Origin: Pseudomonas sp. Bc-h
GTDB taxonomy: Bacteria; Pseudomonadota; Gammaproteobacteria; Pseudomonadales; Pseudomonadaceae
Direction: 5' to 3'
NCBI RefSeq assembly: GCF_002080045.1
Contig: NZ_MUIN01000012.1
Location: 385,557-449,556 of the forward strand
Length of the DNA: 64,000 nucleotides
Shown here: piece after piece, positions 44,817-50,241 of the stretch
Layout: each line of letters begins with the position of its first letter
How positions within the stretch are numbered: position 1 is the first letter of the stretch
Position numbers and translations under genes: made by a program
The notes under the pieces: model-generated
What the model was told of the DNA's origin: nothing
The model's input: only the letters and a program-made list of their open reading frames with translations
Database searches by the model: none

Positions 44817-46757
44817 TCATGCGTCGAGCATCGTACGCACCTTGTCGAGAAATTCGACCATATGAAACGGCTTGATGATCATGTCCATGCCCTCGCCCAG
44901 AAAATGCTGCCGATTGACGGCGTTTTCCGCGTACCCGGTCATGAACAGCACCGGCACGTTGGGTCGCCAGCCGCGCATTCGCTGCGCCAGCTCGCGGCCA
45001 TTCATCTGTGGCATGCCGACGTCGGTCAGCAGCAGATCCACGGAAATGTCGTGTTCGAGGATCGACAGCGCGGTCGTCACATCGGCAGCCTGGGTGCAGC
45101 GATAACCGGCGTCGGTGAGGATCTCGTTGACGAACATGCGCACCGAGGCCGTGTCCTCGACAATAAGGACATGCTCGCCCGCGCCAAGTTCGGCGATTTC
45201 CGGTATTTGCTCAGGGGCAACCGTCTGATTGACGGCCGCAGGCAGCATCAGGGTCACTTCCGTGCCATGGCCAACGACGCTGCGAATGTGCACATCCCCA
45301 CCCGACTGCCGGGCGAAGCCATAAATGGTCGAAAGCCCGAGGCCGGTGCCCTGGCCAATCGGCTTGGTGGTGAAAAACGGGTCGAACACCTTGTCGATGA
45401 CGTGATGCTCGATGCCCAGCCCGTCATCACGCACGGTCAGCGCGATGTACTGCCCGTCCTCGAGACGCGGATTGCCCTGGGAATAGGCCTCGAAGGTGCT
45501 GACCCAGACATTGCCGCCTTCGGGCAAGGCGTCACGCGCGTTGATCACCAGATTGAGCACGGCGCTTTCCAGCTGCCCCGCATCGACCATGGCCACTGCC
45601 CCGCGAGAGGTCAGTTCCAGCGTCAGGCCAATGCGCTTGCCGATGGTTCTGCTCAGCAGATCCTCAAGGGAGCGCACGTGTTTGTTGATGTCCGTGGGAC
45701 GCGTGTCGAGCGGTTGCTGGCGAGCGAAAGCCAGCAACCGATGGGTCAGCGCCGCCGCGCTCTTGGCCGACGCCAGCGCAGCGTCCGCATAATCGAGCAC
45801 CTTTTCCGGCCGCGCGTCTGCGGTGCGCTTCTTGATCAGCTCCAGGCCCGTCACGATCCCGGTCAGCAGGTTGTTGAAGTCGTGGGCGATGCCGCCTGTG
45901 AGTTTGCCGATGGCATCCATCTTCTGCGCTTGCAGCAGCTGTTCTTCGGTCCGCGCACGCTCGGCGACTTCATGGGCAAGCTGGCTGTTGACGGTGTCCA
46001 GCTGCCGCAAGTGGGACTGTTCGCGACGGCGATGCTCGGTGACGTCTTCGATGAACACCAGGCTCAACCCCGTGGCCCGGTAGGGCGACACCTGCCACTC
46101 GGTTTCACGCACGTCGCCGTTGACCAGCATGCTCAGCGTGCCCTTCCAGCGCTCACCCGCCGCCAGCGCCTCGCTCAGCCCGCCGATGGCCGCTTGTTGG
46201 TCATCGGTGAAGCTGTGCAGCAGGCTATGTTCCGGGGCACTCTGGGCGATGAGCCGAGCGAAGGCGTGATTGCATTCATGAATCCTCAACTCGCCATCCA
46301 TCACGGCGATGGGTGCCGACACGTTGACGAAAATCTCGCGAAAACGTTCTTCGCTGTCGCGCAGGGCAAACTCGGTGTCTCGCACCCTCAGCAAGGTGCG
46401 CAGGGTCGCCAGCAACACATCGGGGTCCACCGGGTGGACCAGATAGGCATCGGCGCCCGCTTCAAGGCCGGTGACGATATCGCCGGTCTGAATCGATGCC
46501 GCCGACACATGCACCACCGGCAGCAACGCGGTGCGCGGCTCGCTTCGCAACTGACGGACAATGTCGAAACCGCTCATGTCTGGCAGGTTGACGTCGAGGA
46601 TCAGCGCATCCGGAATCTGCTCGGCAATCAACTGAAGCCCTTCGGCGCCGGTGCCCGCCTCCAGCACCGTGAACCCTTGGCGCTCCATGCGCCGGCGCAA
46701 GGCGTAGCGGGTCGCGGCGTTGTCGTCGACGATCAGCAACCGGCTTTCAGCTTTCAT
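44817..46757 (-). CDS. Hybrid signalling protein: REC-PAS-HisKA-HATPase-REC
   Basis: The 646-residue soluble protein starts MKAESRLLIVDDNAATRYAL. The first receiver has Asp55 in LILDVNLPDM, and a PAS domain covers about 135-250. HisKA carries the phospho-His in TGGIAHDFNNLLTG, the ATPase domain GQGTGLGLSTIYG, and the final receiver LLLTDVGMPQMNG. Its ATG overlaps the preceding histidine kinase gene by 11 bp, so it is translationally coupled to the RsbRST-X cluster and is a likely end point of that pathway. It lies 145 bp before bphP. Confidence 0.92.
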   Translation of the reverse strand: MKAESRLLIVDDNAATRYALRRRMERQGFTVLEAGTGAEGLQLIAEQIPDALILDVNLPDMSGFDIVRQLRSEPRTALLPVVHVSAASIQTGDIVTGLEAGADAYLVHPVDPDVLLATLRTLLRVRDTEFALRDSEERFREIFVNVSAPIAVMDGELRIHECNHAFARLIAQSAPEHSLLHSFTDDQQAAIGGLSEALAAGERWKGTLSMLVNGDVRETEWQVSPYRATGLSLVFIEDVTEHRRREQSHLRQLDTVNSQLAHEVAERARTEEQLLQAQKMDAIGKLTGGIAHDFNNLLTGIVTGLELIKKRTADARPEKVLDYADAALASAKSAAALTHRLLAFARQQPLDTRPTDINKHVRSLEDLLSRTIGKRIGLTLELTSRGAVAMVDAGQLESAVLNLVINARDALPEGGNVWVSTFEAYSQGNPRLEDGQYIALTVRDDGLGIEHHVIDKVFDPFFTTKPIGQGTGLGLSTIYGFARQSGGDVHIRSVVGHGTEVTLMLPAAVNQTVAPEQIPEIAELGAGEHVLIVEDTASVRMFVNEILTDAGYRCTQAADVTTALSILEHDISVDLLLTDVGMPQMNGRELAQRMRGWRPNVPVLFMTGYAENAVNRQHFLGEGMDMIIKPFHMVEFLDKVRTMLDA

Positions 46758-47622
46758 CGACGTGCTCCTGGGCCAACGCCAGCGGGATGACGACATAGAA
46801 TGTCGAGCCGATGCCCGGCTGGCTCTCCACGCCCACGCGTCCACCCAGCAACGCGGCGAAACGTTTGCACAACGAAAGGCCCAGGCCGGTACCGCGCAAC
46901 CGTTTCTGGAGCGGGGAATCGACTTGAGAGAAGTCCTCGAACAAGGCTGCGTGCATTTCTTGAGGAATGCCGATGCCCGTATCGCTGACGGCAAAACGGA
47001 TTTCCTGCTCGCCCGCAAGGCTCGCCGACACCCTGACCTCACCGCGCTGGGTGAATTTCAGGGAGTTGGAGATGAAATTACGCAGGATCTGCGCCAGCTT
47101 CTTGTCGTCCGTATAAAGCCTTGGCAGGCCAACGGGCGCCTCGAAAATCAGGTCCACGGCCGAGGTGTCGACGATTGGCCGGAACATGCCGCGCAGGGCC
47201 GAAAACAGATCCAGCATGTCGAACCAGGCCGGCGAAATGCTGATGCGTCCGGCCTCGATCTTGGCCAGGTCAAGCAGGTCATCGACCATGTCGCTCAGCT
47301 CGCGCGCCGCCGTGCTGACGAACGCCACCTGCTTGTGTTGCTCCGGGCTGAGCGGGCCATCCAGCTCGTCGCTCAGCAGGCTGGCGATACTCAGGATCGA
47401 GCCCAGCGGCGTGCGGAACTCGTGGCTCATGTAGGACAGAAAGCGGCTCTTGAGATCGGACGCCTCACGCAACTGGTCGGCCTGCATGTCCAGCTCGGCA
47501 TACAGCGCCAGCACGCCCTGGTTGGTCTCCTCGAGTTCGGCGCGCAAGGCCGATGCCTCGTCGCGCAGCTGCCGAAGCTCGGCCGACTCATCAAGGCCGT
47601 CGTGAACGAGGTTGTCAGTCAT
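46747..47622 (-). CDS. Soluble sensor histidine kinase with N-terminal coiled coil
   Basis: The 291-residue protein consists of a predicted coiled coil (about residues 12-58, heptad Leu/Ala pattern), HisKA with His67 in YMSHEFRTPLG, and HATPase with NSLKFT, SDTGIGIP and GTGLGLSLCKR. There is no membrane span or sensor domain, so the input is probably a partner protein. The gene start overlaps the phosphatase gene by 8 bp and its end overlaps the hybrid gene by 11 bp. In B. subtilis, RsbT released from the stressosome switches on a phosphatase; here a kinase could be the regulated target. Confidence 0.92.
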   Translation of the reverse strand: MTDNLVHDGLDESAELRQLRDEASALRAELEETNQGVLALYAELDMQADQLREASDLKSRFLSYMSHEFRTPLGSILSIASLLSDELDGPLSPEQHKQVAFVSTAARELSDMVDDLLDLAKIEAGRISISPAWFDMLDLFSALRGMFRPIVDTSAVDLIFEAPVGLPRLYTDDKKLAQILRNFISNSLKFTQRGEVRVSASLAGEQEIRFAVSDTGIGIPQEMHAALFEDFSQVDSPLQKRLRGTGLGLSLCKRFAALLGGRVGVESQPGIGSTFYVVIPLALAQEHVDES

Positions 47623-49382: not shown

Positions 49383-49386
49383 GGGC

Positions 49387-50241
49387 TTATACCGCGGCCT
49401 TGGTGACGGTGACGCCCAGACGACGCAGCGCCATGGCCAGCGCGTCGGCCAGATTGGCCTTGGTCACCACACCTTGCAGGTCCAGCCCCAGGTGCACGAT
49501 GGTCTGTGCGATCTGCGGACGCACGCCGCTGATGATGCAGTCAGCACCCATCAGGCGAATGGCCGTCACGGTCTTGAGCAGGTGTTGCGCCACCAGCGTG
49601 TCCACGGTCGGCACACCGGTGATGTCGATGATGGCGATTTCCGAGCCGGTGTCGACGATGCGTTGCAGCAAAGACTCCATCACCACTTGAGTGCGCTGAG
49701 AATCCAGTGTGCCGATCATTGGCAATGCCAGCACGCCATCCCACAGTTTAACCACCGGGGTGGAGAGCTCAAGCAGCTCCTCTTGCTGGCGCTTGATCAC
49801 TGCCTCGCGGGACTTCTGAAAGGTGCGGATGGTGTGCATGCCCAGCGCGTCGAGGGTCTGGGAGATTTCCCAGAGCTGCTCGGCCAGCAGCGCTGGCTGG
49901 TCGGCGTATTCTTGCTGCAGCAAGGTGAAGAGCGGGCCCTTGAGGGCGAAGATGAACTGAGCCGTCTGTTGCGAATCCTGACCGGCAAGGGCGCGCTGAT
50001 GAGACAGCCTTTCCAGAAACTGTCGAACCTCGTCCCATTCAGCAGCGTTGATGCTCGGCGAACCACCCTTTTCCAGCACCGAAGTCAGCAGCCGCAGGAA
50101 ATCTGAAGTCTGCTGTGCAAGATCTTCGGCTTTGAGATTACGGGTTGCACCACTGGCTTCGAGATCGGCGAGCCAGCGGGCAGAGAGTTGGGCCTCGGAA
50201 CGTTTGACAGAATTCACGGTGGTTTGCTGCAGTGCTGCCAT
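49387..50241 (-). CDS. RsbR-type co-antagonist (RsbRD N-terminal domain plus STAS)
   Basis: The 284-residue protein has an alpha-helical N-terminal sensor of the RsbRD type (about residues 15-150) and a C-terminal STAS domain. The STAS domain carries DITGVPTVDTLVAQHLL with the usual phospho-Thr region. RsbR proteins form the stressosome shell and pick up the signal through the N-terminal domain. ATG at 50241 is fixed by CAGGAG upstream and by similarity of MAALQQ onward. It is the first gene of the RsbRST-X-kinase operon. No heme or flavin ligand motif was recognised in the sensor. Confidence 0.92.
   Translation of the reverse strand: MAALQQTTVNSVKRSEAQLSARWLADLEASGATRNLKAEDLAQQTSDFLRLLTSVLEKGGSPSINAAEWDEVRQFLERLSHQRALAGQDSQQTAQFIFALKGPLFTLLQQEYADQPALLAEQLWEISQTLDALGMHTIRTFQKSREAVIKRQQEELLELSTPVVKLWDGVLALPMIGTLDSQRTQVVMESLLQRIVDTGSEIAIIDITGVPTVDTLVAQHLLKTVTAIRLMGADCIISGVRPQIAQTIVHLGLDLQGVVTKANLADALAMALRRLGVTVTKAAV

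What the first reader, a model, noticed from the sequence alone, without database searches (positions are those of the whole stretch)
44817..50241. Stressosome module (RsbR-S-T-X) overlapping with two kinases instead of a sigma factor
The sequence shows six genes on one strand joined by a 4-bp gap or overlaps of 4-11 bp: RsbRD-type co-antagonist, RsbS (Ser57 in VDSFIGR), RsbT, an RsbX-like phosphatase, a soluble coiled-coil histidine kinase and a REC-PAS-kinase-REC hybrid. RsbRST modules outside Bacillus are known to have other outputs; here the tight coupling suggests RsbT release regulates the kinase pair. The signal and final output are unknown, and no regulator with a DNA-binding or cyclic-di-GMP domain is encoded next to it.
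Basis: partly seen in the sequence, partly recalled or inferred. Interest (0 to 1): 0.75.

Follow-up and report, generated by a model that had tools for sequence, protein, structure and literature searches.

The report
Stressosome operon wired to histidine kinases
A bacterial stress-sensing protein module sits in one operon with two signalling kinases; the same gene set recurs in several bacterial phyla, and in many relatives a copy of the stress module's switch protein is fused to the first kinase, which suggests how the stress signal is handed over.

Summary
The six genes are as described: minus strand, a 4-bp gap, then overlaps of 4, 10, 8 and 11 bp. Stressosome modules with two-component outputs are known (Vibrio vulnificus, PMC9237108). 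I add how this one may be wired. (2) The first kinase begins with a helix, ELxxTNxGVxALYxEL, matching no Pfam family above cut-off. Its core pattern occurs 15 times in 398 genomes of the phylum, all 15 at this operon. (3) The order R-S-T-X-kinase holds in 145 of 149 motif loci not cut by a contig end, in nine phyla (some only as metagenome bins). (4) In many relatives (8 of 17 genomes of the phylum sample, 79 of 80 scan loci) another RsbT-like ATPase is fused in front of the helix; the window's clade, by the tree, lost it once and kept the helix. Best model: freed RsbT, or else the ATPase of X, grips the helix in trans and switches the kinase, which feeds the hybrid. No contact was measured; signal and output are unknown.

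The parts
49387..50241 (-). RsbR-type co-antagonist: RsbRD_N + STAS; candidate phosphosites T208 (DITGV) and S238 (IISGV)
   Evidence: PF14361 E 5.2e-19, PF01740 E 4.7e-14; 7o0i_B and other RsbR chains; positions
49020..49382 (-). RsbS: single STAS domain, S57 in VDSFIGR
48619..49023 (-). RsbT switch kinase: HATPase with N box (E47, N51) and G boxes intact; R21, R25 and D94 align with R19, R23 and D92 of B. subtilis RsbT (that sequence typed from recall)
47615..48628 (-). X: N-terminal RsbT/RsbW-like ATPase domain (Pfam match 19-130) fused to a PP2C/SpoIIE phosphatase (168-330)
   Evidence: PF13581 E 1.7e-9, PF07228 E 2.8e-8; in 22 loci the ATPase domains of X form one clade
46747..47622 (-). 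Soluble histidine kinase: signalling helix + HisKA (H67) + HATPase; no sensor domain found
   Evidence: (one predicted helix, residues 3-84)
47458..47550 (-). Motif helix of the kinase, ALRAELEETNQGVLALYAELDMQADQLREAS (residues 25-55; ends chosen by eye)
44817..46757 (-). REC (D55)-PAS-HisKA (H292)-HATPase-REC (D579) hybrid kinase
42416..44740 (-). Bacteriophytochrome (PAS_2-GAF-PHY-HisKA-HATPase); lineage-specific neighbour, not part of the conserved cassette
41935..42396 (-). Single-domain REC protein of the phytochrome trio
39463..41856 (-). Second REC-PAS-PAS-HisKA-HATPase-REC hybrid, of the phytochrome trio

Best explanation
A stressosome-to-phosphorelay operon. RsbR and RsbS form the sensing scaffold and hold RsbT. 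On stress RsbT phosphorylates RsbR (T208/S238) and RsbS (S57) and is released (inferred from B. subtilis; the residues are present). Free RsbT then binds the N-terminal signalling helix of the soluble kinase (inferred from domain fusions in relatives). That helix is predicted to run unbroken into the HisKA helix, so binding would switch autophosphorylation at H67. Phosphoryl passes to a receiver of the hybrid kinase (REC1 D55 or REC2 D579) and on to an unlinked regulator (inferred). X resets the scaffold by dephosphorylating RsbR/RsbS; its own RsbT-like ATPase domain may tether it there or compete with RsbT for the helix (inferred). In many relatives the RsbT-like partner is covalently part of the kinase; the window's lineage lost that domain and would work in trans.
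For: R-S-T-X-kinase order in 145 of 149 motif loci not cut by a contig end, 59 of 59 own-genus loci of the fusion-less type. Pattern for GV[VL]ALY[AS]EL: 15 matches in 15 of 398 genomes, 0 for the reversed pattern, all 15 at this operon (G430). RsbT-like domain fused before the helix in 92 of 160 motif loci, duplicates included, with ATP-site residues S47, E48, R51, N52, G83 invariant in 81 rows. Fusion-less kinases form one clade (18 rows, SH-aLRT 99) inside fused ones in a midpoint-rooted tree, while E, L, T and N of the helix, outside the pattern that selected the 80 scan loci, stay at 98-100% in both groups. In 22 sampled loci RsbT, X-ATPase and fused ATPase fall into three groups (supports 72, 100, 98). 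Active-site residues of RsbT, kinase and hybrid are present. Precedent: RsbT activates RsbU by ordering its coiled-coil linker (PMC12143880, abstract and passages seen).
Against: No binding data. In fusion-less loci RsbT did not become like the fused domain at most positions, so a takeover by RsbT is not visible in sequence. The D aligned with RsbT D92, which pairs with the RsbU linker, is G in the two fused domains aligned and mostly G, and the arginine of the helix (R in 89% of fused rows) is Q in the window and 92% of fusion-less rows; so the contact need not resemble RsbT-RsbU. X's ATPase is an equally present candidate. The AlphaFold model of a fused protein has pTM 0.53 and does not place the ATPase on the helix. 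V. vulnificus RsbT and its kinase gave no positive interaction (PMC9237108, section 10), though that kinase is of another class. Four of 149 loci break the order.
Confidence: 0.5

Rival explanations
1. The N-terminal ATPase domain of X, not RsbT, docks on the kinase helix in trans. X would be a two-domain feedback protein whose ATPase replaces the lost fused domain and couples kinase output to scaffold reset.
For: X carries this domain in all 145 complete motif loci (required by the count; in the 4 exceptions too). Its gene lies directly upstream of the kinase gene. Among 14 stressosome-like loci of the other RsbS type, 2 have the X-type ATPase on the phosphatase, 4 have an RsbT-type domain fused to it, 8 show neither, and none has the motif. 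In fusion-less loci the X-ATPase G1 box has drifted (DR[G/A]QGF with one residue lost), a sign of changed function.
Against: X already has the domain where the kinase has its own fused ATPase, so it did not arise as a replacement. R25 of RsbT, aligned with the RsbU-binding R23 of B. subtilis RsbT, is Q in the window's X.
Confidence: 0.2
2. RsbT phosphorylates the histidine kinase or hybrid on Ser/Thr, the transient mechanism suggested for Vibrio by Heinz et al. 2022.
For: Proposed in PMC9237108 section 10 (read) for downstream kinases without RsbU_N; RsbT has an intact ATP site.
Against: It does not by itself explain why an RsbT paralogue is fused to the helix or why the helix is so conserved. 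The invariant T could be a target site; not tested.
Confidence: 0.12
3. Signal runs the other way: the kinases, with PAS and phytochrome inputs, feed into the stressosome, the fused or free ATPase modifying RsbR/RsbS.
For: The hybrid has a PAS domain and the phytochrome trio lies next door; the fused ATPase keeps ATP-site residues.
Against: The first kinase shows no sensor domain. The phytochrome trio is linked in only 4 of 59 own-genus loci.
Confidence: 0.12
4. The genes are merely co-expressed and act independently.
For: No interaction has been measured; operons can group unrelated stress genes.
Against: Core pattern only at these loci in 398 genomes, order conserved, direct domain fusions.
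Confidence: 0.05

Closest known systems
Vibrio vulnificus RsbRSTX-D1-D2 stressosome locus (PMC9237108, section 10 and passages; PMC10014275, passages)
   Same: RSTX module with two-component genes immediately downstream and no RsbU or sigma factor; the downstream genes follow the transcription kinetics of RSTX there.
   Different: RsbR there has a heme globin, here RsbRD_N. The phosphatase of those clusters is described as single-domain PP2C, here ATPase+PP2C. VvD1 has a PAS domain, and D1-D2 are tied to c-di-GMP. Three unnamed loci with a large hybrid kinase after R-S-T-X (L221, L223, L225) have no motif.
Bacillus subtilis RsbT-RsbU switch (PMC12143880, passages)
   Same: RsbT ATPase and a coiled-coil linker controlling a dimeric output enzyme; residues aligned with RsbT R19, R23 and D92 are kept in the window's RsbT (B. 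subtilis sequence recalled).
   Different: Output is a histidine kinase, not a phosphatase; no RsbU_N; in many relatives the RsbT-like domain is covalently attached, and that domain lacks the D92 equivalent in the two examples aligned.
RsbU_N-bearing kinases and diguanylate cyclases near rsbT in Proteobacteria (PMC9237108, PMC12143880)
   Same: Stressosome outputs coupled through an N-terminal module and helix.
   Different: RsbU_N: 9 of 398 genomes (8 over cut-off). Motif kinases: 17 of 398. No genome has both.
HisKA/REC phosphorelay outputs of RSTX modules, e.g. Ruegeria (PMC9237108 Fig. 3 legend and text)
   Same: HisKA and REC proteins downstream of RSTX.
   Different: That survey started from globin-type RsbR; the text I read mentions neither an RsbT-like domain fused to the kinase nor this helix.

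Membership tests
RsbRSTX stressosome module | RsbR: variable N domain + STAS with phosphorylatable Thr/Ser | tested here: met
   RsbRD_N+STAS; T208 and S238 at the positions I recall as T171/T205 of B. subtilis RsbR
RsbRSTX stressosome module | RsbS: single STAS with conserved Ser | tested here: met
   S57 invariant in the 10 rows of A2
RsbRSTX stressosome module | RsbT: small GHKL kinase with intact ATP motifs | tested here: met
RsbRSTX stressosome module | RsbX: PP2C feedback phosphatase | tested here: met
   SpoIIE domain; extra N-terminal ATPase domain; feedback role not tested
RsbRSTX stressosome module | megadalton RsbR/RsbS particle | not testable with these tools
   needs protein
Sigma-B type output (RsbU/RsbV/RsbW/SigB) | RsbU with RsbU_N domain | tested here: not met
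   own genome has no PF08673 match at E <= 0.001
Sigma-B type output (RsbU/RsbV/RsbW/SigB) | sigma-factor gene in the operon | tested here: not met
   none of the ten proteins scanned between 39463 and 50866 is a sigma factor; rest of genome not searched
Vibrio-type globin stressosome | globin-coupled sensor in RsbR | tested here: not met
   RsbRD_N, no globin family at E <= 0.01
RsbU_N-coupled kinase outputs | RsbU_N at N-terminus of the kinase | tested here: not met
Histidine kinase / hybrid kinase | phospho-His, N, G1 and G2 boxes, receiver Asp | tested here: met

The most novel reading that the evidence does not exclude
Across several phyla the stressosome regulates histidine kinases directly: an RsbT paralogue fused to the kinase lets RsbR/RsbS hold and release the kinase itself, and a highly conserved 'ETN-GV-ALY-EL' helix is the clutch between the RsbT fold and the HisKA domain. 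The window's lineage split this protein, leaving the clutch to be worked in trans by RsbT or the X ATPase. It would be a second kind of stressosome output coupler, distinct from RsbU_N.
Probability: 0.35. Interest if true: 0.8.

Novelty: new variant of a known kind. Interest (0 to 1): 0.62.

Why it matters
How stressosomes drive outputs that lack an RsbU_N domain is left open in PMC9237108 (section 10). Here is a specific, mutable helix and a natural series of RsbT-kinase fusions that make the question testable in laboratory strains. If right, a widespread class of Gram-negative stressosomes would be front ends of histidine-kinase phosphorelays, joining partner switching and two-component signalling in one protein.

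Tried and rejected
Similarity of the motif (T-N-[RQK]-G) to B. subtilis RsbU linker residues T89-L90-R91-G92 (residues named in PMC12143880) looked like homology. None of the 9 genomes with RsbU_N is among the 15 with the core pattern, and I saw no such motif in the RsbU_N proteins printed, cut at 190 residues. I keep it as a weak lead only.

Takeover test: did RsbT or X-ATPase in fusion-less loci acquire residues typical of the fused domain? RsbT did not, apart from E at column 11 of that table; X-ATPase changed elsewhere. Undecided, and those rows are mostly one genus.

Structure prediction: the fused protein gave an unbroken helix 162-248 but pTM 0.53; the window kinase a helix 3-84, pTM 0.64. 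Both are single chains; neither shows docking. No fold search was run.

Light input through the phytochrome as the general signal: rejected, since only 4 of 59 own-genus loci carry it; a phytochrome of at least 70% identity over the searched segment is in 36 further genomes of the 149, and no phytochrome stood beside the cassette in the own-genus loci fetched apart from those 4.

Literature: searches. Judged from their listings and the passages I opened (PMC12143880, PMC4976288, PMC9237108, PMC2887360, PMC4524716, PMC10014275), none describes this operon in Pseudomonas, the motif, or an RsbT-kinase fusion. Only open-licence papers are searched; I did not open the other listed papers. Pane-Farre 2005 and Quin 2012 are not held, so mention there cannot be excluded.

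Dropped or limited rows: one search leaves out L001-L004, L125, L126 and L045 (short or duplicate) and counts 5 loci cut by contig ends apart. Its 4 failures are L061 (RST divergent), L065 and L091 (no RST in 6 and 10 kb upstream) and L104 (RsbR divergent). One search used 106 rows, with 19 of the fusion-less loci; one, L111, is cut by its contig end. One search's domain tree used 22 loci. One search covers 14 of the 20 genomes with a weaker RsbS match. The scan used a fused sequence as first query row and the pattern GV[VL]ALY[AS]EL, so both the share of fusions among its 80 loci and the invariance of those residues are partly built in. The DNA pattern also admits F for V/L and misses AGY serines. 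Several phyla rest on single metagenome bins.
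Full report
What is there. Six minus-strand genes at 44817-50241 encode RsbR (RsbRD_N+STAS), RsbS, RsbT, X (ATPase+PP2C), a soluble histidine kinase and a REC-PAS-kinase-REC hybrid. X is not a plain RsbX: residues 19-130 match HATPase_c_2 (E 1.7e-9) in front of the SpoIIE phosphatase domain. Key residues are present: RsbR T208/S238, RsbS S57, kinase H67, hybrid D55/H292/D579.

The kinase helix. Pfam finds no sensor domain in the kinase. Its N-terminus is predicted as one helix from residue 3 to 84, running into HisKA. 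The first 63 residues match no Pfam family above its cut-off, and RsbU_N is not among the weak matches. In ELxxTNxGVxALYxEL the named residues E, L, T, N, G, A, L, Y, E are 98-100% conserved in 78 distinct fused and 55 distinct fusion-less helix sequences. For the 80 loci the GV.ALY.EL part was the search pattern; T and N, which were not selected, are 100% in both groups.

How specific it is. A DNA pattern for GV[VL]ALY[AS]EL has 15 matches in 398 genomes of the phylum, one in each of 15; the reversed pattern has none. All 15 lie at this operon (for G430, whose locus is short, RsbS). A profile of RsbS gives 17 genomes at E <= 1.9e-55; the next is at 1.6e-33. These 17 are the 15 plus two with variant motifs (L011, L211). 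Of the 20 genomes with weaker matches I looked at 14: none has the motif; 2 have the X-type ATPase on the phosphatase, 4 have an RsbT-type domain fused to it and no separate RsbT, 8 show neither. RsbU_N occurs in 9 of the 398 and in none of the 17.

How widespread it is. In the own genus 58 of 149 genomes, own included, have the short kinase at E < 1e-28, and 5 more a longer type at E 1.1e-17 to 1.0e-15. The rarer phyla rest on metagenome bins, so some assignments may be wrong. R-S-T-X-kinase order is complete in 145 of 149 motif loci not cut by a contig end; 5 more are cut. A gene with a receiver domain follows in 134 of 140 loci with room for it.

The fusion. In 92 of 160 motif loci, duplicates included, an RsbT-like ATPase domain is fused before the helix; in L010 the domain covers residues 35-154 and the helix match 200-249 of 609. 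By sample: 8 of the 17 genomes of the phylum set, 5 of the 63 own-genus genomes with the operon and 79 of the 80 scan loci, whose query was itself of the fused type. Its ATP-site residues S47, E48, R51, N52 and G83 are invariant in 81 rows. In a 61-row tree of 22 loci, RsbT, X-ATPase and fused ATPase fall into three groups, supports 72, 100 and 98. Fusion-less kinases, the window's included, form one clade of 18 rows (SH-aLRT 99) inside the fused ones; the 19th, L111, is cut by its contig end. The root is a midpoint root and several deep forks are weak, so one loss is likely, not proven. In L017 and L211 the same ATPase-helix pair sits on another kinase class, and in L212 an RsbT-like domain precedes a kinase of yet another type without the motif.

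How it probably works. In B. subtilis, RsbT released from the stressosome binds RsbU's N-domain and linker and orders a coiled coil (PMC12143880, passages seen). Heinz et al. (PMC9237108, section 10) state that most downstream signalling proteins in their set have no RsbU_N and can only suggest a transient phosphorylation. The fusion series suggests an answer for the present class: an RsbT-type ATPase acts on the ETN-GV-ALY helix, in cis in many lineages, in trans in the window's. The window's RsbT keeps residues aligned with the RsbU-contacting R19, R23 and D92 (B. subtilis sequence recalled). Against a contact of exactly the RsbU kind, the fused domains aligned there have G at the D92 column, and the helix arginine is Q in the window. 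Sequence does not show whether RsbT or the X ATPase took over, and the structure models do not place the ATPase on the helix.

Neighbourhood. A bacteriophytochrome, a REC protein and a second hybrid follow 76 bp downstream on the same strand; the consensus scan shows no terminator-like site in that gap, which is not proof of co-transcription. Only the window, L025, L026 and L040 share this, out of 59 own-genus loci of the fusion-less type; they group together in the kinase tree (support 86). A phytochrome of at least 70% identity over the searched segment is present in 36 further genomes of the 149. It may add light input in this lineage, but it is not part of the cassette.

Verdict. A stressosome with two-component output is known; the fused RsbT paralogue, the exclusive helix and the ATPase on X define a variant that I did not find described in the open papers searched. 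Confidence in the mechanism is moderate because nothing physical was measured.

Noticed in passing
window 39463-44740: Bacteriophytochrome + REC + REC-PAS-PAS-kinase-REC trio directly downstream, same strand; among 59 own-genus loci linked to the stressosome operon only in the window, L025, L026 and L040.
   Followed up: partly
L017 (ORF 8765-11320) and L211 (ORF 6200-8602): RsbT-like domain + motif helix fused to another kinase class with REC; the scripts show no separate hybrid gene after it.
   Followed up: partly
L212:5883-7118: RsbT-like ATPase fused to a histidine kinase of another type (EVHHRTGNN) without the motif, next to R-S-T-X.
   Followed up: partly
L218, L219, L220, L224: RsbT-type ATPase and PP2C phosphatase are one fused protein behind RsbR and RsbS, another stressosome layout.
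   Followed up: no
L061, L065, L091: Cyanobacterial loci with the X-kinase pair but RST divergent (L061) or not found in 6-10 kb upstream (L065, L091).
   Followed up: no
L131: X gene appears in pieces (different frames) in this draft genome.
   Followed up: no
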